From: Bacteroidales bacterium
GTDB taxonomy: Bacteria; Bacteroidota; Bacteroidia; Bacteroidales; F082
Reading direction: 5' to 3'
Assembly: GCA_017381865.1 (NCBI GenBank)
Contig: JAFOBJ010000041.1
Location: 1-43,762 of the forward strand
DNA: 43,762 nucleotides
In this document: positions 74 through 43,723 of the stretch, piece after piece
Layout of the letters: each line of letters starts with the position of its first letter
Numbering within the stretch: position 1 is the first letter of the stretch
Program-made: the position numbers and the translations under genes
The notes under the pieces: generated by a model
Told to the model about the DNA's origin: nothing
The model's input: only the letters and a program-made list of their open reading frames with translations
Databases searched by the model: none

Positions 74-202
74 TCGCCCCGTCCCCGAAACTCGTTCCCG
101 TTCCCGCTCGCAAAGGATGCCGCTCCAATCCCTAACGCATTGGCAGCGATTAAAACCAAACAAAACCCTAGAAATCCATAATTCCGTTAATTCCAGAAAT
201 CC

Positions 203-232
203 GTAGAGACGCCATAGGGGTGACGTCTCTAC
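203..232. repeat. GTAGAGACG inverted repeat (MITE-like)
   Basis: GTAGAGACG at 203-211 is matched exactly by CGTCTCTAC at 224-232, giving a 30-bp hairpin unit with a 12-nt centre. Related copies occur at 17951-18002 (longer arms, inside the apbE 3' end) and 38624-38643 (degenerate right half). Units with these ends are, from general knowledge, common small dispersed palindromes in several bacterial phyla; no transposase is attached. Confidence 0.6.
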
Positions 233-233
233 A

Positions 234-258
234 ACTCCTAACTCCTAACTCCTAACTA
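234..258. repeat. ACTCCTA heptamer array
   Basis: Three and a half copies of the 7-nt unit ACTCCTA run in phase directly after the GTAGAGACG hairpin. It is one member of the 7-nt-period family described in the findings. Confidence 0.8.
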
Positions 259-432
259 ATATAGCGTCGTCTTATCTTACATTTATTTCTCTCTTTAAAA
301 GAACACCATAAGGGCAAAACAGCCGTTTCTAAGACATATTCATACCAATCCAAAGATTTTATACAAATACGAACAAAACGCCTCTCATACGATTTAAAAC
401 TGCTTTATCGACAATTTCAAACAATCAATAAA

Positions 433-512
433 GTCAATGGTCAACAGTCAATGGTCAATAGCCAATAGCCAATGGTCAATAGCCAATGGTCAATAGCCAA
501 TGGTCAATAGTC
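433..512. repeat. 11-copy heptamer array, unit G(T/C)CAA(T/C)(A/G)
   Basis: Eleven units of exactly 7 nt follow one another from 433 to 509: gtcaatg, gtcaaca, gtcaatg, gtcaata, gccaata, gccaatg, gtcaata, gccaatg, gtcaata, gccaatg, gtcaata, then a partial gtc. Variation is limited to positions 2, 6 and 7 of the unit. The array ends at the A-tract of the terminator of the next gene. The same unit occurs inside coding sequence at 27380-27435, 15318-15354 and 17798-17825. Confidence 0.95.
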
Positions 513-550
513 AAAAAAAAAGAGCGATCCAAAGACCGCTCTTTTTTTTT
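513..550. terminator. Bidirectional intrinsic terminator after the T9SS cargo gene
   Basis: AGAGCG (521-526) pairs with CGCTCT (537-542), flanked by an A-tract (513-521) and a T-tract (542-550), so both strands have a hairpin followed by a U-run. It lies 22 nt beyond the stop of the minus-strand gene ending at 573. Confidence 0.85.
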
Positions 551-5977: not shown

Positions 5978-5983
5978 TCCACA

Positions 5984-6003
5984 AATCAACACGAATCAAC
6001 ACG
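5984..6003. repeat. Two direct copies of AATCAACACG
   Basis: Perfect 10-nt tandem duplicate between the GH92 stop and its terminator. Similar TTTCGTG-type words recur at 28089-28168. Confidence 0.7.
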
Positions 6004-6035
6004 AAAAGAGGACATCAAATTTGATGTCCTCTTTT
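6004..6035. terminator. 32-bp loopless perfect palindrome, bidirectional terminator
   Basis: Two 16-nt arms meet at 6019/6020 with no spacer (left arm AAAAGAGGACATCAAA). It sits between converging genes (plus-strand GH92 stop at 5977, minus-strand TonB receptor stop at 6083), and the arms end in A and T tracts, so it can terminate both transcripts. Confidence 0.8.
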
Positions 6036-8670: not shown

Positions 8671-8719
8671 GAGCTAAAAACTAAGAACTAAGAGCTCAGA
8701 ACTAAGAACTAAGAACTTT
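8671..8719. repeat. Seven-copy heptamer array, unit GAACTAA
   Basis: Seven consecutive 7-nt units: gagctaa, aaactaa, gaactaa, gagctca, gaactaa, gaactaa, gaacttt. It lies between the metF stop and the TonB receptor start. The reverse-complement family reappears at 25067-25115. Confidence 0.9.
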
Positions 8720-13957: not shown

Positions 13958-16507
13958 CTACATCGGGTCCACATCAATCTGTATCTTCACCGACTTGAAA
14001 TCGTTGTTATGCTTGAAGTCTTCTATGGTCTTATTGATAAACTCCTTGACTTTCGTCGAGTTAAGGTCTTTATGAATTTTTATCAGCATCTGTTTGATAT
14101 ACTGATTCTTCACTCTCGAAACGACAGGATATTCCGGTCCGAGGAGGTTTTCCTTAAACACCTGACGGAAAATCTTGGCGAGTTCGTTAGCCGCTTTATT
14201 GAGTTTTTGCTCATCAACATCTTTCATGCGTATCATTACGAGTCGCGAGTATGGCGGATAGTTGAACTGACGTCGTATCGGCATCTGTTCTTCGTAAAAC
14301 TTCACATAATCGTGAGTCATCACGTTGAGTATCACAGGATGTTGAGGTTGGTATGTCTGTATTATGACCTTGCCTTTGTCGCCTTTTCTTCCGGCGCGAC
14401 CGCTCACTTGTTCCATCAGCTGGAAGCTGCGTTCGTAAGCGCGAAAGTCGGGGAATGTCAGCATGTTATCAGCGTTGAGGATTCCGACGACCTTTACCGA
14501 GTCGAAGTCGAGGCCTTTTGTCACCATCTGTGTTCCGACGAGGATATTGGTTTCTTTATTTTGAAATTGTTCCAGAATAAACTGATAGCTGTTTTTCGTG
14601 CGTGTCGTATCGAGGTCGAGGCGTGCGCTGTTAGCGTCAGGGAAGATTACCTTCAGGTCGTCTTCGATGCGTTCTGTTCCGAAGCCGTACATCTTGAGGT
14701 CTGTGCTGCGGCATGACGGGCATTCTGTCGGCACGCTGGTCGTATAGCCGCAGTAGTGGCACTTCAGTATGTTCTGGTTTTTATGGTATATCAGACTGAC
14801 GTCGCAGTTGATACACTGAGGGATATAGTTACAATGTTCACATTCTATTCTTAAAGAAAATCCGCGGCGGTTCTGGAACAAGATGACTTGGTTTTTCTCC
14901 CCGAGCGTCTTATTCATCGCCTCGATGAGTGCGCTACCGAAGTTGGCTTGCAGCGTCTTACGACGCGTCTCGACTCTGAGGTCGTTGACGATGATTTCTG
15001 GCATCTCGACACCACCGTAACGTTCCGACAATGTGACGAGATGGTATTTATTCTGGCGTGCGTTGTAATATGATTCGAATGACGGCGTAGCCGAGCCCAA
15101 CAGGAGGCGAGCGTGGAACATCTTCGACATAAGAGCGGCGAGGTCGCGAGCCGAATAACGCGGCGCCGGGTCTATCTGCTTGAACGAGCTGTCGTGTTCC
15201 TCGTCAACGATAATCAATCCTAAGTCAGTAAACGGCAAAAACACAGCCGAACGCGAGCCGATGATAATCTGGTATTTTGAACTAAGGCTTTGGGCTTTTG
15301 GCTTTTGAACCTCTGAAGTCAATAACTGTTGGCCGTTGGCCGTTGGCTGTTGACTTCTAAAGTTCATCACCTGTTGCCATATCTCGACACGTTCATTGTT
15401 GTCGTAACGTGAGTGATATACTCCTACTATATCGCCGAAATATTTCTTTAACCTATTGATAATCTGTTCTGTCAAAGCAATTTCCGGAAGCAGATACAAG
15501 ACTTGCTTTCCTTCGTCAATGGCTTCTTGAATCAGTTTTATATAGATTTCCGTCTTGCCACTCGCTGTTACGCCATGCAACAAAACAGGTTTCTCTTCTT
15601 CAAAGCCTTTATGTATATTATCAAAGGCTTCTTGTTGTTTCTCAGTAAGATTGATAGTCGAAACATCTGTCAGAGCATCATATTTTTTCAGACGACTGAC
15701 TCTTTTTTGATAAGACTCAAAGACGCCCTTATCGACCAAAGTCGCTAATATTGACGATGTCGCATTAGCTTTTTTTAACAAATCAGAAGCAAGCACATCA
15801 TTATCTGCCGAACCGCCGAGTACAAAAAACGCCATCAGAAGCTCGAGCTGCTTGTAGGCTCGTTTTGAAAGAGTGTCCATCAGCTCTCGCATCGCATCGT
15901 CGCTACGATAAGTGTTCGAAAGTCGCACATATCGCTCATATTTAGCCTTATATTTCTGCTGTAATTCTTCCTGCATCACGACGATTTTCTTCTCTATCAT
16001 CGTCTTGATGAGAGGCATGATTTTCTTGTAACCTATTATCTTACTTACCTCAGTGATAGTGAGTTGCGGCTGTATCTGAAGAGCTTCCACGATAAGAAAT
16101 TCATTATCGCTCAGCGTCATAGTATCGAGTTGGAAGTCTTCCGACAACATAATCTTCGACTCGCTTGAAAGCTTCAATGCAGAAGGAAGAGCGACCTGCA
16201 TAACATCGCCGAGATAACAGAGATAATACGATGAAATCCAACGCCATAATTTAAGTTGGTTTTCATTCACGACAGGGTCATCGTCAAGTATGTCGAGGAG
16301 ATATTTTATACTTGTGCAATCTGGCACTTCTTCTGTGAGAGATATTATCAGTCCCGACATAATCTTCGTCTTACCGAACTGTACCACAGCACGTTGTCCT
16401 ACCCTCGCCTTCTGGTTTAACTCAAAAGGAACTCGATAGGTGTAAGTGCCAGGTATCGGCAATGGCAGCAAAATCTCTGCAAATAAAGTGACTCTCTCTT
16501 CCGACAT
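13958..16507 (-). CDS. priA: Primosomal replication-restart helicase PriA
   Basis: A 3'-5' DNA helicase that reloads the replisome at stalled forks. The 849-aa product has the N-terminal DNA-binding domain (1 to about 200), Walker A GVTASGKT with Lys318, Walker B DEEH at 435-438, a zinc-binding region of paired Cys residues (CEHCNY, CINCD, CHYCGY, CPSCRS, about 555-605) and the C-terminal helicase lobe with QVSGRAGRKG. One oddity: residues about 383-410, between IWQQV and YQIIIGSRSA, are Gln/Ser-rich and encoded by eleven 7-nt repeats (15278-15354). Typical PriA has only a few residues at this point. The reading frame stays open, so function is probably kept. The plug-protein gene ends 10 nt upstream, implying cotranscription. 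Confidence 0.97.
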   Translation of the reverse strand: MSEERVTLFAEILLPLPIPGTYTYRVPFELNQKARVGQRAVVQFGKTKIMSGLIISLTEEVPDCTSIKYLLDILDDDPVVNENQLKLWRWISSYYLCYLGDVMQVALPSALKLSSESKIMLSEDFQLDTMTLSDNEFLIVEALQIQPQLTITEVSKIIGYKKIMPLIKTMIEKKIVVMQEELQQKYKAKYERYVRLSNTYRSDDAMRELMDTLSKRAYKQLELLMAFFVLGGSADNDVLASDLLKKANATSSILATLVDKGVFESYQKRVSRLKKYDALTDVSTINLTEKQQEAFDNIHKGFEEEKPVLLHGVTASGKTEIYIKLIQEAIDEGKQVLYLLPEIALTEQIINRLKKYFGDIVGVYHSRYDNNERVEIWQQVMNFRSQQPTANGQQLLTSEVQKPKAQSLSSKYQIIIGSRSAVFLPFTDLGLIIVDEEHDSSFKQIDPAPRYSARDLAALMSKMFHARLLLGSATPSFESYYNARQNKYHLVTLSERYGGVEMPEIIVNDLRVETRRKTLQANFGSALIEAMNKTLGEKNQVILFQNRRGFSLRIECEHCNYIPQCINCDVSLIYHKNQNILKCHYCGYTTSVPTECPSCRSTDLKMYGFGTERIEDDLKVIFPDANSARLDLDTTRTKNSYQFILEQFQNKETNILVGTQMVTKGLDFDSVKVVGILNADNMLTFPDFRAYERSFQLMEQVSGRAGRKGDKGKVIIQTYQPQHPVILNVMTHDYVKFYEEQMPIRRQFNYPPYSRLVMIRMKDVDEQKLNKAANELAKIFRQVFKENLLGPEYPVVSRVKNQYIKQMLIKIHKDLNSTKVKEFINKTIEDFKHNNDFKSVKIQIDVDPM
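15278..15354 (-). repeat. 11-unit heptamer array inside priA
   Basis: On the coding strand: gtcaaca, gccaacg, gccaacg, gccaaca, gttattg, acttcag, aggttca, aaagcca, aaagccc, aaagcct, tagttca. Seventy-seven nt encode an in-frame insertion in PriA. Confidence 0.85.
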
Positions 16508-16517
16508 ATTTTAAAAA

Positions 16518-17837
16518 TTAATGTGATAAAACCGTCTTCACTCCTATCAGCTGGTCGTAATTCTGCGTTGGGTCGAAGATATATAAATATATCGTATATT
16601 CGTTTTTCGTCTCCCAGAAATTACCTGCAACAACACCGACATCTGCCGTCGCCTGTCCTCTTTCTTTCACTGCATAGATATAATCATAATATCCTTGCTT
16701 CAGTAACAGATTGAGTGCGTAGCCCTTACGTTCATAATCGTAAGTCATCTTATTTTTCTCGTCGAGATTCCAATCTGTTATCGCTCCCATGATATAAACA
16801 TCTTGGTCGGTCATCACTGGAAACCAATCTAGGAAGAATTCTACCATTACATAATCTGCTTCCGTTGCCGCATTTCTATCGTCACGTTCAAGATAAATAA
16901 CCTTCTCGCCGAACAAATCTTCGTCGTCGATATAAGCATACAAATTACGTTTCTGGTCGTTATATAATGTAACTACATAATAATCTTTCGACATCTCGAC
17001 GGTCTTCGTCTGTTCAGGACGATTGTTCAAATTACTTGTATTGAATCTTCTATATTGATTACCAGAGTTAAAGACAGTCTTAACATTATTTTCATAAGAA
17101 AGATAATCTGGATAGACATATGTCGGCTTCAATCCCGTCACAGCATTATCCCAACGGCCGTTTTGCTGAATTGTAACATTTGAATATTGCTCAGCCAAAG
17201 AATTAAAAATATTAGGATAAGAAACAGTCATATTAATTTGCTGCTTGTTCGTACCGAGACTTAAATCAAAAGGATAACGAGGAATGTTTACATTGAAATT
17301 AGCCTTTTCGTCAACAATCATAAAACGGCGTGTGAAATAAATATTTTCTGGCGTGAGTTCGTTTTCAAAAACTATGAGAAGATAATTACCTGAGATTTTC
17401 GGAATCATATCTTCTGTAGGAAAGACGAGGTCGAAGTGAACATAATCGACCATAGTATTTAAAGAAAATGAATAATTCTCGATGTCGTCGGATTCAAATC
17501 CGTTAAGATATTCTATCTGCTGAATGTCAGACTGTTGTGTCCAGTCGTTATTACAATGAATAAAAGTGTAATACATATAAGGAGCGTCGTTGGCAAAGAC
17601 GTCGAACTGCAGATGCAGTTTTCCCATCATATCATTGAGAGGAATGATTGGCTTTGCGAGAGAATCGCCGACAGGATGAAGAAGCACTGTTTGAACGTCA
17701 TCGTTATAGTTGGTATCTGTGTAAGATTGAAGCTGCTGAGCGTTAGCAGATGTTATCATGACTAAAGACAAAAGGCTAAAGACTAATGTCCTAAGACCAT
17801 TGACCATTGTCCGTTGTCTGTTGACTTTATTATTCAT
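16518..17837 (-). CDS. Type IX secretion system plug protein (DUF5103 family)
   Basis: DUF5103 proteins include the periplasm-side Plug that closes the SprA translocon of T9SS. The 439-aa product matches the family in layout: mature N-terminus near NAQQLQSYTD, a first beta domain with YYTFIHCNNDW, RRFMIVDEKANF near 195, and a C-terminal immunoglobulin-like domain (VEFFLDWFP, IYLYIFDP). I started it at the ATG at 17837, because the -7 box at 17853-17860 lies inside the longer frame (17885). The ATG at 17807 gives a cleaner signal peptide. The signal-peptide core is encoded entirely by heptamer repeats, which is very unusual. priA follows after 10 nt. It serves the secretion route used by the 573-2828 product. 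Confidence 0.85.
   Translation of the reverse strand: MNNKVNRQRTMVNGLRTLVFSLLSLVMITSANAQQLQSYTDTNYNDDVQTVLLHPVGDSLAKPIIPLNDMMGKLHLQFDVFANDAPYMYYTFIHCNNDWTQQSDIQQIEYLNGFESDDIENYSFSLNTMVDYVHFDLVFPTEDMIPKISGNYLLIVFENELTPENIYFTRRFMIVDEKANFNVNIPRYPFDLSLGTNKQQINMTVSYPNIFNSLAEQYSNVTIQQNGRWDNAVTGLKPTYVYPDYLSYENNVKTVFNSGNQYRRFNTSNLNNRPEQTKTVEMSKDYYVVTLYNDQKRNLYAYIDDEDLFGEKVIYLERDDRNAATEADYVMVEFFLDWFPVMTDQDVYIMGAITDWNLDEKNKMTYDYERKGYALNLLLKQGYYDYIYAVKERGQATADVGVVAGNFWETKNEYTIYLYIFDPTQNYDQLIGVKTVLSH
17756..17825 (-). repeat. Ten-unit heptamer array encoding the plug protein signal peptide
   Basis: Ten in-phase units on the coding strand: gtcaaca, gacaacg, gacaatg, gtcaatg, gtcttag, gacatta, gtcttta, gcctttt, gtcttta, gtcatga. 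Each starts G-n-C or G-A-C, and the translated peptide shows a Val every seven residues. Confidence 0.95.
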
Positions 17838-17871: not shown

Positions 17872-17895
17872 AATGCATAATGCATAATGCATAAT
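17872..17895. repeat. CATAATG heptamer array
   Basis: About three units of the 7-nt word CATAATG upstream of the plug gene. The same class occurs at 19071-19102 and 26697-26724. Confidence 0.8.
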
Positions 17896-17950
17896 TATAA
17901 CGAGAAATAATAGAAATTGTTTTTAACAATCATTCCTAACTCCTAATTGA

Positions 17951-18002
17951 TTAGACGCTTCAATGTGTGTTTATATTTTAGGAAACATTGAAACGTCTCT
18001 AC
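17951..18002. repeat. GTAGAGACG-type inverted repeat overlapping the apbE 3' end
   Basis: Left arm TAGACGCTTCAATGT (17952-17966) and right arm ACATTGAAACGTCT (17985-17998) pair with one mismatch; the outer end is TGTAGAGACG on the minus strand. The apbE stop codon (17971-17973) lies in the loop and the arm encodes its last residues. Confidence 0.75.
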
Positions 18003-19070: not shown

Positions 19071-19102
19071 AATTATGCATTATGAATTATGAATTATGAA
19101 TT
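19071..19102. repeat. AATTATG heptamer array carrying a stop codon
   Basis: About four in-phase units of AATTATG/CATTATG. On the minus strand they encode the last residues (IHNS) and the TAA of the 76-aa membrane protein. Confidence 0.85.
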
Positions 19103-19317
19103 GCGTCTTGTTGACCTGTAGTTTTGTTGTCTTTATTCTTCCTACAGCTTCCGTCGCCTTTGCCGCCGCATGTGCATTTAGCGTCAGGGTCGAGGGAGTG
19201 AGCGCACTTGCGTTCAAATTGTCCGTCTTTTTTTACTAGCATTTTAATTCCAATACCAGCGAAAACCACCGCCATAATGACGAGTGCAGGAATCAAGATA
19301 AGAAGGAATGTGCTCAT
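19087..19317 (-). CDS. Small single-pass membrane protein with Cys-rich tail
   Basis: A 76-aa protein with one N-terminal transmembrane helix (about residues 4-27), a Lys-rich cytoplasmic-side edge (KMLVKKDG) and a hydrophilic tail with four cysteines (CAHSLDPDAKCTCGG...GSC). The spacing could bind a metal or form disulfides, but I know of no demonstrated function. Similar small proteins occur beside apbE in Bacteroidota, to my recollection. The start is 2 nt after the tyrS stop, so it is cotranscribed with tyrS. The final residues (about IHNS) and stop come from a 7-nt repeat array, so the native end has probably been replaced. Confidence 0.75.
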   Translation of the reverse strand: MSTFLLILIPALVIMAVVFAGIGIKMLVKKDGQFERKCAHSLDPDAKCTCGGKGDGSCRKNKDNKTTGQQDAIHNS

Positions 19318-22017: not shown

Positions 22018-23088
22018 ATGATTTTCATCACAGGATGCACCGGATTAGTAGGATCACATCTAGTAGCAACATTAATTTGTAAACAACAGTTAGAATCTGA
22101 GTCAATAAGTCTATCTGTCAATAAGTCTATAAGTTCTGAGTCAGAGTCAATAGTCAGAGTCAAATTGTTATGTCGCAAAAACAGTGATTTATCGTTGTTG
22201 AATGACGTATTGAAGCGTTATGGTTTTAATGAAATTCCTAGTAACATCGAGTTTGTTTATGGTGATGTTTTGGATTATGATATTCTTGAAGCTGAGATGA
22301 AAGATGTCGATGAGGTCTATCATTGTGCTGCTGTCGTTTCTTTCGACCCAAGCGACAAAGGCAGTCTGATGCGTGTCAATGTGGAAGGAACGCGAAACAT
22401 GGTCAATGCGGCTTTGCATTGCGGAGTGAAGAAATTCTGTCACGTCAGTTCCATCGCTGCTCTTGGCCGCGCCCTCGAGGGCGAACCTATCGACGAAAAT
22501 TCGCCATGGTCGCTCTCAAAGAACAACAGCATATATTCAATCTCGAAACACGAAGCCGAAATGGAAGTCTGGCGCGGCATAGCCGAAGGCCTCAACGCTA
22601 CCATCGTAAATCCTTCACTGATACTCGGCGCAGGCCGATGGAATTCTAGCAGCTGCGAACTTTTTAACGTCATCGCCAAAGGATTTCCTTTCTACACAAC
22701 CGGCATCAATGGCTTCGTCGACGTAAAAGACGTGGCTCGCGCCATGATAATGTTAATGGAAAATAACAAATTCGGCCAACGATACTGCCTCAACGGAGCT
22801 CTTATCTCTTACCAATATCTGTTCAATTTGATGGCTCAAAACTTCAATGTAAAAGCTCCTTACATAAAAGTCGGGAAAGGCCTGAGCGAAATAGCTTGGC
22901 GCATCTTCTGGCTCATCGGAAAAATACAAGGTAAAAAACCTCTCATCACAAAAGAAACGGCTCGCACCGCAACAAGAAAATATTCTTATTCCTCAGAAAA
23001 AATAATACGCGAACTGAACTTCAAATTCACTCCTATCGAAGAAAGCATCAAGGAAATATGCTGTATTTATAAAACTCAAAACTCCTGA
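22018..23088 (+). CDS. NAD(P)-dependent epimerase/dehydratase (extended SDR)
   Basis: A 356-aa oxidoreductase of the extended short-chain dehydrogenase type, closest in feel to dihydroflavonol-reductase-like and sterol-dehydrogenase-like members. The Rossmann motif TGCTGLVGS is at residues 5-13, the catalytic Tyr-Lys pair is in YSISKHEAE, and VYHCAAVVSF and NPSLILGAG are typical. The substrate is unknown. Between helix 1 and strand 2 (about residues 26-48) there is a Ser/Glu-rich insertion that the family lacks, encoded by a low-complexity stretch built of GTCAATA- and AGTCTAT-like words (22093-22165). The gene converges on the GH16-like gene with only 12 nt between stops and no clear terminator. 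Confidence 0.85.
   Translation: MIFITGCTGLVGSHLVATLICKQQLESESISLSVNKSISSESESIVRVKLLCRKNSDLSLLNDVLKRYGFNEIPSNIEFVYGDVLDYDILEAEMKDVDEVYHCAAVVSFDPSDKGSLMRVNVEGTRNMVNAALHCGVKKFCHVSSIAALGRALEGEPIDENSPWSLSKNNSIYSISKHEAEMEVWRGIAEGLNATIVNPSLILGAGRWNSSSCELFNVIAKGFPFYTTGINGFVDVKDVARAMIMLMENNKFGQRYCLNGALISYQYLFNLMAQNFNVKAPYIKVGKGLSEIAWRIFWLIGKIQGKKPLITKETARTATRKYSYSSEKIIRELNFKFTPIEESIKEICCIYKTQNS
22093..22165 (+). repeat. Low-complexity repeat words inside the SDR gene
   Basis: The words gtcaataagtctat (22101-22114), gtcaataagtctat (22117-22130) and several gagtca/agtcaa copies alternate. They resemble the heptamer arrays, but the phase is not kept as strictly. Confidence 0.6.
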
Positions 23089-25058: not shown

Positions 25059-25066
25059 CAAATATA
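25059..25066 (-). promoter_or_regulatory. -7 box TATATTTG for the GH16-like gene
   Basis: A match to TAnnTTTG 12 nt before the ATG at 25047. The heptamer array 25067-25115 begins at the very next base, so the -33 region lies inside the repeat. Confidence 0.55.
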
Positions 25067-25115
25067 GTTCTTCGTTCTTAGCACTTAGTTCTTCGTTCTT
25101 AGCTCTTCGTTCTTT
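25067..25115. repeat. Seven-copy heptamer array at the rlmL-like 3' end
   Basis: Seven units in phase on the plus strand: gttcttc, gttctta, gcactta, gttcttc, gttctta, gctcttc, gttcttt. On the coding strand this is the GAACTAA class of 8671-8719. It encodes KNEELRTKN plus the TAA of the upstream gene. Confidence 0.95.
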
Positions 25116-26361: not shown

Positions 26362-26697
26362 ATGACAATAGATGAAGCTCAGAAAATCGTCGACAACTGG
26401 ATTAAAACTCACGGGGTTCGTTACTTTAACGAATTGACAAACATGACTTTATTAACTGAAGAAGTGGGTGAACTAGCTCGTATTATGGCTCGCACTTATG
26501 GCGAACAATCGTTCAAGAATTCCGATAAAGAATATAACATGGCCGACGAAATGGCCGATATCCTCTGGGTCCTGATTTGCCTAGCCAACCAAACTGGCAT
26601 CGATTTGACTGACGCATTCAAAAAAAATCTAGAAAAAAAGACAAACCGCGACAAGGATAGACATATAAATAATGAAAAACTAAAAATTGAAAATTAA
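26362..26697 (+). CDS. MazG-type nucleotide pyrophosphohydrolase
   Basis: A 111-aa all-helical NTP pyrophosphohydrolase of the MazG/RS21-C6 group, which hydrolyses (often non-canonical) NTPs to NMP and PPi with Mg2+. The two metal-binding motifs are present: EEVGEL (E-E-x-x-E type) near 31-36 and DEMADIL (D-E-x-x-D) near 67-73. Length and the ending RDKDRH are typical of Bacteroidota members. The ATG at 26362 is preferred to the one at 26317 because of the promoter position. An ATTATGC/ATTATGA heptamer array starts at the stop codon's last base and separates it from the next gene. Confidence 0.9.
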   Translation: MTIDEAQKIVDNWIKTHGVRYFNELTNMTLLTEEVGELARIMARTYGEQSFKNSDKEYNMADEMADILWVLICLANQTGIDLTDAFKKNLEKKTNRDKDRHINNEKLKIEN

Positions 26698-26724
26698 TTA
26701 TGCATTATGAATTATGCATTATGA
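26697..26724. repeat. ATTATGC/ATTATGA heptamer array
   Basis: Four exact-length 7-nt units alternate attatgc and attatga between the MazG-type stop and the next gene. The array also offers a spurious upstream ATG (26714) for that gene. Confidence 0.9.
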
Positions 26725-26737
26725 ATTGTTTCAAACC

Positions 26738-28084
26738 ATGAACAAACTGATATTGACATTATTCTTCTTGATATTTAATTTCTGTTTAATCGGACAGAAT
26801 AATGTCAGCGTAACTTCAAATGACACAATAATTTCATATAGTTACCAAAAACTCAGCGACGAACAACTCGACTCTACATATAAAATTATAGACTCTATTT
26901 ATTCCGTAAATAACATCAACCTTGACCAATTAACTTCTTATTTGTCTTCAATGTTTATAAAAGGAATCCCTATCGGATTCATCAATTTGAAAATTGACAA
27001 CATCGCTGGTTATAACATTGGAAATGGTTTAATGTTCGGTATGGGATTGGAGACAAACGATCGTTTATCGAAAATCTTTTCCATAGAATGTTTTGGCAAT
27101 TATTGGACAAAGGCAAAAGAATTCAATTATGCTACCGACCTAACGTTCAAGATTTTACGTTCTAAAGACATGAAATTAAAATTCGGGTTATACCATAAAT
27201 TCGAAAGATTTGGAAATTATGGCTTCAAAGAAAACGAAATTCTGCTAAATCATGAAAATTTCAAGTATTTTTATACGAAATCGACTTCATTAAATGATTA
27301 CATATATGTCAATTATTCAACATATTTAAACAAAAACGTCAAAGCATTCGCTAGATTTGAAGTATCAGACAAAACTACAGTCAATGGTCAATGGTCAACA
27401 GTCAATGGCCAACAGCCAATAGTCAACAGCCATCGCCTGAGCACTTTGGAATTTAAATTAAGGATAGCTTTCGGAGAAAAGTTTGTCAATTCTAAAGACG
27501 GATTCAAAGTTGAAGGTGATGCCAATCCTATGATTTGGCTTTCTTATAAAAAGAATTTAAAAAATGTTTTCCGCAGTCCTTACGACTTCGACAAATTTGA
27601 ATTTTTATTTAGAGGAAAAAAATACACACGATGTTTAGGAGAAACATCTTTGGCTGCACAATATGGCTACATAAACGGTTTCGCTCCTGCAACTGAATTA
27701 TTCAATATTTATGGAACTGGAGAGAATAAATTTGATATTTATTGTATGGAAAGTTTCAGCACCATGAGTCCTGACGAGTTTTTCTGCAACGAATTTGCTG
27801 CTTTATATTTATCACACAACTTCAAGAATCTCTTAATAGATTTTAAGAAATTCCATCCTGAACTGATAATTTTAACCAACATCGCTTGGTTTGATGGAAC
27901 TCAACAACTCAGCAACTCAGCAACTCAGCAACTCTATTATGAAAGCGGACTCATTGTCGACAACATTTTAAATATCGGCATCATTAAATTTGGATTGGGA
28001 GCTTTTTATCGCTACGGACCTTATTCATACGATAAAACATGGGACAATTTCGTCTTTAAAATTTGTATCGAATTTGATATATAA
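26738..28084 (+). CDS. Outer-membrane barrel protein, DUF5686-like
   Basis: A 448-aa exported protein with signal peptide MNKLILTLFFLIFNFCLIG. I reject the ATG at 26714 because it lies in a repeat. The C-terminal half looks like the barrel part of DUF5686 proteins (SPYDFDKFEFLFRGKKY, LAAQYGYINGFAP, the ending FYRYGPYSYDKTWDNF and a final FDI). Full DUF5686 proteins are about twice as long and begin with a carboxypeptidase-regulatory domain, absent here, so this is a short or divergent relative. Residues about 215-233 are a 7-aa-periodic insertion (VNGQWST, VNGQQPI, VNSHRLS) written by eight heptamers, and residues about 390-399 come from an 8-nt repeat. Both probably sit in barrel loops. Function unknown. 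Confidence 0.65.
   Translation: MNKLILTLFFLIFNFCLIGQNNVSVTSNDTIISYSYQKLSDEQLDSTYKIIDSIYSVNNINLDQLTSYLSSMFIKGIPIGFINLKIDNIAGYNIGNGLMFGMGLETNDRLSKIFSIECFGNYWTKAKEFNYATDLTFKILRSKDMKLKFGLYHKFERFGNYGFKENEILLNHENFKYFYTKSTSLNDYIYVNYSTYLNKNVKAFARFEVSDKTTVNGQWSTVNGQQPIVNSHRLSTLEFKLRIAFGEKFVNSKDGFKVEGDANPMIWLSYKKNLKNVFRSPYDFDKFEFLFRGKKYTRCLGETSLAAQYGYINGFAPATELFNIYGTGENKFDIYCMESFSTMSPDEFFCNEFAALYLSHNFKNLLIDFKKFHPELIILTNIAWFDGTQQLSNSATQQLYYESGLIVDNILNIGIIKFGLGAFYRYGPYSYDKTWDNFVFKICIEFDI
27380..27435 (+). repeat. Eight-unit heptamer array inside the DUF5686-like gene
   Basis: Units: gtcaatg, gtcaatg, gtcaaca, gtcaatg, gccaaca, gccaata, gtcaaca, gccatcg. These are the same words as the intergenic array 433-509, 27 kb away. 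Confidence 0.95.
27905..27934 (+). repeat. CAACTCAG 8-nt tandem repeat inside the DUF5686-like gene
   Basis: Three full copies and a partial one of CAACTCAG, translated in frame as QQLSNSATQQL. This array has period 8, not 7. Confidence 0.9.
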
Positions 28085-43129: not shown

Positions 43130-43558
43130 ATGAAAAAATTTTTGGTCATATTAGTATTTTTTTTAGGCTTCAATTCATGTATTGACACGCCTTACAATCC
43201 GAACACGCCAGATGTCTACATCAATTTCGAGATTTATCCTAATTCCACATTTTATCCTGAATTAAATACAGTAAGCGGATGTCTTGAATTCTATGCTCCT
43301 TGGCCAAGTCGAGGCATCATCATTTATCGCTACTCACAAGACGAATTCAAGGCTTACGAACGACAATCGCCAAACGAGCCTAATTATTGCGGCGAAAACT
43401 CCAAACTTATAGTCGAATTTCCTTTCGTCGTCGACACTTGTCTTGACATAAAATACAGTATATTAGACGGTTCCATATTCACACCTAATTATATGGGTTA
43501 TCCTCTGATTGAATACAGAACTCAATATGACGGACACACTCTTAGGGTTTTTAATTAG
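43130..43558 (+). CDS. Small lipoprotein, Rieske-like fold without cluster ligands
   Basis: A 142-aa lipoprotein (lipobox FNSC, lipidated Cys17). The pattern YINFEIYPNS, RGIIIYRYSQDEFKAYERQSP, then CLDIKYSILDGSIFTPNYMG and PLIEYRTQYDGHTLRVFN follows the Rieske domain layout: strand, first ligand loop, second ligand loop, then G-PL and a closing strand. However, the CxH and CxxH motifs that hold a [2Fe-2S] cluster are absent: SPNEP replaces the first, and CLDIKY keeps one Cys but no His in the second. It is probably a cluster-less relative, common among small Bacteroidota lipoproteins. The start is set at the internal ATG; the frame upstream begins with TTG inside the promoter. The stop overlaps an AGGAACTA repeat. 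Confidence 0.6.
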   Translation: MKKFLVILVFFLGFNSCIDTPYNPNTPDVYINFEIYPNSTFYPELNTVSGCLEFYAPWPSRGIIIYRYSQDEFKAYERQSPNEPNYCGENSKLIVEFPFVVDTCLDIKYSILDGSIFTPNYMGYPLIEYRTQYDGHTLRVFN

Positions 43559-43596
43559 GAACTAAGGAATTGAGGAACTAAGGAACTAAGGGGATG
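43557..43596. repeat. AGGAACTA 8-nt tandem repeat
   Basis: Units of 8 nt: aggaacta, aggaattg, aggaacta, aggaacta, aggggatg. The array begins at the stop codon of the preceding lipoprotein gene. Confidence 0.8.
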
Positions 43597-43677: not shown

Positions 43678-43723
43678 AATATAATAACTTTGATGAAAAC
43701 GTTTTCATCAAAGTTATTATATT
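43678..43723. repeat. 46-bp perfect loopless palindrome
   Basis: Two 23-nt arms meet at AAC/GTT (43700/43701); the right arm from the centre begins GTTTTCATCAAAGTTATTAT. It lies about 120 nt past the lipoprotein stop and 14 nt before a REP-like hairpin. It may be a terminator or part of a mobile palindromic unit; the U-run is weak. Confidence 0.9.

What the first reader, a model, noticed from the sequence alone, without database searches (positions are those of the whole stretch)
433..512. A family of strict 7-nt-period arrays with changing words, spread over the whole window
At least eight arrays share a heptamer period while their words differ: G(T/C)CAA(T/C)(A/G) at 433-512, 15318-15354, 17798-17825 and 27380-27435; GAACTAA at 8671-8719 and 25067-25115; ATTATGA/CATAATG at 17872-17895, 19071-19102 and 26697-26724; ACTCCTA at 234-258. 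Substitutions are frequent, but insertions or deletions that would break phase are rare, which simple slippage of one ancestral unit does not predict. Heptanucleotide repeats are known from some cyanobacteria; I do not know of a described system like this in Bacteroidota. A dedicated copying or templating mechanism, or a selected 7-nt spacing, is possible.
Basis: seen in the sequence. Interest (0 to 1): 0.8.

Follow-up and report, generated by a model that had tools for sequence, protein, structure and literature searches.

The report
Drifting seven- and eight-letter DNA arrays
This bacterium carries many short DNA stutters with seven- or eight-letter units, between and even inside genes, and their 'words' seem to change together across the genome from one species to the next; such stutters are known in other bacteria, but local copying slips alone do not explain the coordinated change.

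Summary
The arrays are real: all 10 listed spans are period-7 repeats, and period 7 gives 87 runs in 438 kb of this genome against about 1 in Markov copies. They are not strictly 7: period 8 gives 50 runs, while 6 and 9 give 9 and 4. The two best-sampled relatives show the same two periods. Heptamer arrays are already described in Cyanobacteria, Xanthomonas, Beggiatoaceae and five Bacteroidetes, so the kind is known. What looks new is how they evolve. In one loop of the PriA helicase gene, 8 of 11 related species carry arrays, mostly with different words and either period. Words at unlinked loci are shared far above chance, and more within than between three genomes (0 of 2000 permutations), with no fall over distance. 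This genome has 171 GTCAAYR against 27 GACAAYR doublets; ten of ten relatives have the reverse excess. Best explanation: mostly neutral, self-spreading arrays kept periodic by slippage in 7-8-nt steps and homogenised between loci by ectopic copying. That last step is inferred. A dedicated templating machine was not searched for and is not excluded.

The parts
233..257 (+). AACTCCT array (period 7), preceded at 207-232 by a dispersed palindrome
   Evidence: exact-repeat islands
432..514 (+). GYCAAYR array, 11.9 units, beside a terminator-like hairpin past the stop of a gene with a T9SS sorting domain
   Evidence: in G009 the matching gene end lies 29 nt from priA, with no room for the array; G027 and G066 have other heptamer arrays mapped near here
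8671..8719 (+). GARCTAA array; G079 has GAGCTAT/GAGTTGT at the same site
15286..15307 (-). GCCAAAA array inside priA (loop); octamer arrays at this place in G079, G067, G066, G075, G074
15325..15355 (-). GCCAACG/GTCAACA array inside priA (loop); GACAACR in G079, GTCAACGA (8) in G067
17795..17825 (-). GACAACG-GACAATG-GTCAATG array at the 5' part of the T9SS plug ORF; GACAACA in G079, octamers in G067
17872..17895 (-). MATTATG array; aligned but less regular sequence in G009, similar arrays in G066, G079, G083
19071..19105 (+). MATTATG array upstream of apbE; octamers mapped near here in G067 and G066
22100..22163 (+). mixed 8- and 13-nt AGTCAATA-type array (phase breaks); G079 has GACAACG here
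25065..25114 (-). mixed GAACTAA/GAACGAA/GAGCTAA array, 21-nt higher-order period
26696..26727 (+). MATTATG array upstream of the DUF5686-like gene; AATTAGG in G009 and AATTAGG/AGTTAGG in G079 at this place
27380..27435 (+). GYCAAYR array inside the DUF5686-like gene; 39 nt longer than the G079 counterpart, which has a single GACAACA
27897..27936 (+). AACTCAGC octamer array inside the DUF5686-like gene; AATCTCAG at the same place and phase in G079
43553..43591 (+). AGGAACTA octamer array

Best explanation
The arrays are mostly neutral tandem repeats that persist and spread as DNA. Step 1 (shown for some sites): a site, in a gap or in a protein loop, can keep an array through several speciations, while many other sites gain or lose one. 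Step 2 (pattern shown, mechanism inferred): within an array units are gained, lost and replaced in 7- or 8-nt steps, so a base change is copied to the other units and phase is kept; replication slippage or unequal exchange does this. Step 3 (pattern shown, mechanism inferred): variants also pass between unlinked arrays of one genome, by template switching or gene conversion over their 20-80 nt of likeness, so each species drifts to its own vocabulary. Step 4 (shown in part): selection only removes arrays that break genes or promoters, which leaves stop-free words inside genes and fewer arrays in divergent gaps.
For: Period peaks at 7 and 8 in own, G009 and G079 samples. At the PriA loop 8 of 11 species have arrays, mostly with different words; by mapped position 12 of 25 array clusters are shared by two or more species. 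Array pairs in one genome have the same main word in 4.4-7.0% of cases, pairs from different species in 2.3-3.3%, random intergenic words in 0.1-0.6% (G000, G009, G079); 0 of 2000 label permutations reach the excess; no fall with distance. Whole-genome doublets GTCAAYR:GACAAYR are 171:27 here and 75:222, 16:32, 2:9, 14:22, 30:78, 7:16, 113:194, 103:207, 9:112, 31:94 in ten relatives. Unit GTCAATG is in 3 of 6 comparable orthologous arrays here and in 0 of 6 in the relative. Arrays lie inside 20 ORFs, all with Pfam matches. Word strand is indifferent to transcription in tandem gaps for GNCAAYR (6:6) and MATTATG (9:9).
Against: No exchange event was seen; parallel mutation cannot be excluded in single cases (GACAACG to GACAATG is one step). 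Only six orthologous GNCAAYR arrays were comparable; 8 of the 14 own arrays with a mapped counterpart had no such array in the relative, and 15 of 19 own arrays had none in G009, so shared words may come from births by copying as much as from rewriting in place. Words are shared between species too, and GTCAATR exists in other phyla. The word AAYTCCT is not strand-indifferent (13:4). Why 7 and 8 but not 6 or 9 is not explained. Recombination over so short a likeness is usually inefficient in bacteria (recalled).
Confidence: 0.6

Rival explanations
1. Purely local slippage: the polymerase re-anneals preferentially after 7 (or 8) nt, and each array arises and evolves alone (the proposal of Mrazek 2007 as cited in PMC4679880 and PMC4692102; the paper itself not seen).
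For: Accounts for in-phase change inside an array, for 14- and 21-nt higher-order periods and for in-gene arrays. A MutS domain is present in 11 of 11 clade genomes, and mismatch repair weakens with loop length (PMC4060949, passage).
Against: Does not predict the same words at unlinked loci, the genome-wide GAC-to-GTC difference, or that close relatives differ in the 7:8 ratio (G067 6:14, G027 11:1 in small samples; p 0.001).
Confidence: 0.25
2. Selected sites: the arrays are terminators, promoter parts or binding sites of a protein that reads 7-8-nt steps.
For: Arrays are fewer in divergent gaps (1.16 per kb against 2.5-2.6 in other gaps; 0.40 against 2.0-2.2 in G009). Inverted array pairs are enriched, 18 of 137 against 4.3 expected, G009 14 of 92 against 4.0; one hairpin with a T tract keeps its form with different words in two species. 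In G009, 9 of 69 intergenic arrays lie by a -7 promoter box, above the maximum of 20 random draws (8).
Against: 27 of 137 arrays are inside ORFs, many in enzymes; strand is indifferent for the two commonest classes; in own and G079 the -7 box is within the random range (10 of 96, mean 7.3, maximum 14; 6 of 41, mean 3.5, maximum 8); inverted pairs are a minority, and direct pairs are as enriched in G009 (15 against 3.3); words change freely.
Confidence: 0.07
3. A dedicated templating system (an RNA-templated polymerase or similar) writes heptamer and octamer words at many sites.
For: Sharp 7-8 window, genome-biased vocabulary, no distance effect, word change along an array without loss of phase.
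Against: No gene was searched for; one locus holds different words and both periods in different species; many words coexist in one genome, which would need many templates.
Confidence: 0.05
4. Horizontally spread heptamer DNA shared among Bacteroidota, Cyanobacteria and others, or an assembly artefact.
Against: Only 8 of 98 other genus members held have a GTCAATR doublet; arrays at shared sites differ in phase-preserving ways; words of cyanobacterial arrays match own words only about 3-fold above chance (21 against 6.8 of 3741 pairs). Arrays are short (the longest in the window about 83 nt) and recur in 11 separate assemblies, whose read types are unknown.
Confidence: 0.03

Closest known systems
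TAACTGA heptamer direct repeats (MacGregor 2015, PMC4679880)
   Same: Heptamer tandem arrays, mostly intergenic, some in ORFs, in Cyanobacteria, Beggiatoaceae and five Bacteroidetes; the same gap in a close relative may lack them
   Different: One favoured word, single-base variants rarely repeated, in one species mostly just upstream of start codons; here many words, variants common, no such position, and period 8 as well
GGGAATC / GGGGAYT heptamer arrays of Xanthomonas and Nostoc (Rehm 2015, PMC4692102)
   Same: Degenerate heptamer arrays spread over the genome, under-represented between divergent ORFs, mostly between the same genes in two species with extensive length and sequence variation
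   Different: G-rich and quadruplex-forming; one word; here A+T-rich in the main, many words
Cyanobacterial STRR heptanucleotides (Mazel 1990; name recalled, three Calothrix heptanucleotides mentioned in PMC4692102)
   Same: 7-nt tandem arrays, several words in one genome
   Different: Defined in Cyanobacteria; octamers and word turnover between congeners are not part of the description as recalled
Constant-size, variable-sequence satellites of Bacillus (Subirana and Messeguer 2021, PMC8161180)
   Same: Repeat length conserved while sequence is not
   Different: Units of 52 or 20-21 nt in Firmicutes; no vocabulary comparison of orthologous arrays in the abstract and discussion read
Rickettsia palindromic elements (Ogata 2000; recalled)
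   Same: Repeated DNA inserted in frame inside conserved genes
   Different: Palindromic, about 100-150 nt, not tandem (recalled)

Membership tests
Long heptanucleotide simple-sequence repeats of prokaryotes | Tandem 7-nt units beyond chance | tested here: met
Long heptanucleotide simple-sequence repeats of prokaryotes | Period 7 is the dominant long period | tested here: inconclusive
   7 leads but 8 reaches 50 against 87; 8 leads in the small G067 sample, 14 to 6
Cyanobacterial STRR | Several dispersed heptamer families in one genome | tested here: met
Cyanobacterial STRR | Cyanobacterial host | tested here: not met
   Por_Secre_tail and T9SS plug domains; that these mark Bacteroidota is recalled
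TAACTGA repeats | TAACTGA word favoured | tested here: not met
   The backward control GRTAACTGRTAACTG, which holds TAACTG, has 0 places in this genome and 1 to 12 in some relatives; TAACTGA itself was not searched
TAACTGA repeats | Placed just upstream of start codons in one orientation | tested here: not met
   32 of 52 tandem-gap arrays lie nearer the upstream stop (rough gene calls); orientation indifferent for the two commonest classes
G4-forming heptamers | Repeated G runs | tested here: not met
   words listed; by eye, no folding test
Dedicated templated-copying system | A template RNA and a polymerase gene linked to array presence | not tested
   no gene search made
Repeats homogenised between loci | More likeness within than between genomes at unlinked loci | tested here: met
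   three genomes:
Repeats homogenised between loci | Conversion tracts observed | not testable with these tools
   needs population reads

The most novel reading that the evidence does not exclude
A trans-acting copying process works on these arrays: it acts on any 7- or 8-nt tandem array in the genome and rewrites it towards a genome-wide vocabulary, in genes and gaps alike, so that a new word can sweep through a bacterial chromosome in the time that separates sister species. As far as the searches made here show, this would be the first bacterial case of concerted evolution among dispersed arrays of only 20-80 nt.
Probability: 0.2. Interest if true: 0.85.

Novelty: new variant of a known kind. 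Interest (0 to 1): 0.55.

Why it matters
Why heptamers are the commonest long-unit repeats in many bacteria was raised by 2007 (as cited in PMC4679880) and is still open. This genus, with 99 genomes held here and dense arrays in at least two sampled subgroups, lets word, period and site be followed across species. That makes two things testable: whether the 7-8-nt step is a property of the polymerase, and whether short dispersed arrays in bacteria exchange sequence. The arrays also put variable loops, rich in Q, N, S and T, into enzymes such as PriA and a Mur ligase-alanine racemase fusion, so they are a source of protein variation.

Tried and rejected
Promoter role: arrays seemed to sit beside TAnnTTTGC boxes (10, 11 and 7 cases in three genomes, 4- to 9-fold over the genome average). 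Against random intergenic places own (10, mean 7.3) and G079 (6, mean 3.5) are within range; G009 (9, mean 4.0, maximum 8) is just above. Dropped as a general explanation.

Terminator or hairpin role as a general explanation: inverted pairs are enriched, but only 18 of 137 and 14 of 92 arrays have one, and direct pairs are also enriched in G009.

Hot-spot sites: 4 of 19 own arrays had an array in the G009 counterpart; I judged, without computing it, that the density of arrays in gaps would give as much.

Mismatch-repair loss: a MutS domain is present in 11 of 11 genomes.

Local duplication as the source of shared words: sharing does not fall with distance.

Common vocabulary with Cyanobacteria: 21 of 3741 pairs against 6.8 by chance; weak, and the loci were chosen for GTCAATR.

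The first PriA alignment used wrong strands and was redone.

Full report
Observation. A lag scan gives 10 period-7 runs in the window, two of period 8 and at most one at every other period from 2 to 13. I then took 20 stretches (394 kb) from the same genome, 2.12 Mb in 99 contigs, 79% complete. With the window that makes 437,608 bases: 87 runs at period 7, 50 at period 8, 9 at 6, 4 at 9, 12 at 10; Markov copies give 1.0 and 0.0 runs at 7 and 8. The excess is real and not confined to the window, but it is an excess of 7 and 8.

Words. The main 7-mers are MATTATG, GYCAAYR, GARCTAA and AAYTCCT; the main 8-mers AACTYAGY, ACTYATAG and AAGACWAC. Variation falls on the same few positions at many loci: of 34 own GYCAA arrays, 25 have a unit ending in CA, 18 TG, 16 AA, 13 TA, 8 CG and 3 AG. 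Positions 6 and 7 are linked (42 TG, 22 TA, 10 CG, 50 CA units; odds ratio 9.5; units inside an array are not independent).

Relatives. Of 98 other genomes of the genus, 8 have the GTCAATR doublet, once or twice each; this genome has 46. By PriA protein the nearest are G079 (92%), G067 and G066 (88%), then G009, G081, G083, G068, G075, G074 and G027 (85-80%). The G009 and G079 samples show the same peaks, 56 and 42 runs at period 7, 36 and 14 at period 8; the other eight samples are small (11-116 kb). In single 20-kb samples of 20 further members, 6 of 7 from the subgroup with PriA identity 72-73% have period-7 runs, and 4 of the other 13.

Same site, different word. In PriA, 27 of 30 species first compared have a short loop of constant length; the three of this clade have a longer one. 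Eleven clade members could be aligned there, and 8 have a 7- or 8-nt array: GCCAACG/GTCAACA here, GACAACR then GGCGACTC in G079, GTCAACGA then AGACTCAG in G067, a short octamer array in G066, GAGACTCG in G075, AGAACTTC then GGCGACTC in G074, AGGAGTTC in G083, GTCAACA/GACAACA in G068. G009, G027 and G081 show no clear array there. Periods 7 and 8 thus replace one another in all units. In the solved PriA chain 6dcr_A the place is a turn: query residues 382 and 411 align to chain residues 256 and 258. In the DUF5686-like gene AACTCAGC stands here where G079 has AATCTCAG, at the same phase. By mapped position 12 of 25 clusters hold arrays of two or more species, and 7 of these 12 hold both periods (relaxed threshold; clusters merge arrays within 60 nt, so not every pair is strictly orthologous). 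On the other side, 15 of 19 own arrays have no array in the G009 counterpart.

Vocabulary follows the genome. Pairs of arrays at least 2 kb apart have the same main word in 5.8% (own), 7.0% (G009) and 4.4% (G079) of cases, against 2.3-3.3% between these genomes and 0.1-0.6% for random intergenic words. None of 2000 permutations of genome labels reached the difference. Sharing does not fall with distance: own 4.1% at 0.3-2 kb and 5.9% on other contigs. Counted in whole genomes, GTCAAYR and GACAAYR doublets are 171 and 27 here; in ten of ten relatives GACAAYR prevails (overlapping places, not arrays; the backward control of the second pattern also matches, since that pattern reads nearly the same backwards). 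The octamer doublet CAACGAGTCAACGAGT, found at two sites near priA in G067, occurs 9 times in G067, 7 in G066, 4 in G074, once in G027 and not in the other seven. Of 14 own GNCAA arrays with a mapped counterpart, 6 have such an array there too; GTCAATG is in 3 of these 6 here and in none of the relative's.

Inside genes. 27 of the 137 own arrays lie at least 90 nt inside ORFs of 150 aa or more, in 20 ORFs. All 20 have a Pfam match (18 at 1e-5; PriA and the DUF5686-like one, the latter just under its curated cut-off). By my reading of those tables 13 arrays in 12 genes lie within or between matched domains, among them a Mur ligase-alanine racemase fusion, a biotin carboxylase, an RNase H, an alpha-amylase-type branching enzyme (that name is my inference) and two T9SS sorting domains. 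In-gene arrays of three or more units must be free of stops on that strand, since 7 and 8 are prime to 3; stop-bearing variants such as AACTTAGC are found mainly in gaps.

Function. Arrays are thinner in divergent gaps (rough gene calls), and inverted pairs are enriched about four-fold but are a minority. Strand is indifferent for GNCAAYR and MATTATG; AAYTCCT leans one way, 13 to 4, in tandem gaps. The promoter association mostly vanished against an intergenic control, G009 staying just above it. I conclude that most arrays are tolerated, not used.

Mechanism. Slippage or unequal exchange explains periodicity and in-array uniformity. The genome-biased vocabulary needs exchange between loci, births by copying, or a mutational or templating bias that changes between sister species. 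I favour copying between loci, at 0.6 for the whole account. The 7-8 window stays unexplained; polymerase contact length has been proposed (Mrazek 2007, as cited).

Literature. MacGregor 2015: abstract, passages, sections 8 and 12. Rehm 2015: passages. Subirana and Messeguer 2021: abstract and discussion. Mrazek and Huang 2014: passages. A 2025 survey of short tandem repeats, which notes high repeat density in Bacteroidota: passages. Seven searches, read as listings, showed no report of genome-wide word turnover in bacterial heptamer arrays; the library lacks most subscription journals.

Noticed in passing
window 105-159: Tail of a dispersed element of about 100 bp (up to 8 copies in 438 kb); a 33-nt piece is identical in G009
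   Followed up: partly
window 207-232: Dispersed palindrome of the GAGACGTCAC..GTGGCGTCTC type, up to 9 copies in 438 kb, placed before AACTCCT arrays at two loci at least
   Followed up: partly
window 17950-18002: 53-nt dispersed sequence with inverted ends, 3 copies in the sample
   Followed up: no
window 5980-6005 and L050 about 10695: Period-10 CACGAA / TTAGTG arrays, a further repeat language, 12 runs in 438 kb
   Followed up: no
window 43678-43723 and 6004-6035: Perfect palindromes of 46 and 32 nt
   Followed up: no
L049 9940-10210: Two inverted octamer arrays form a hairpin with a T tract; G009 has the same form with other words on both arms
   Followed up: partly
G010, G014, G030, G057, G107: The backward control pattern holds TAACTG and matches several relatives, so TAACTG-type heptamer arrays exist in the genus and order
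   Followed up: no
L041 4215-6719: Mur ligase and alanine racemase domains fused in one ORF, with an octamer array in the Mur ligase part
   Followed up: no
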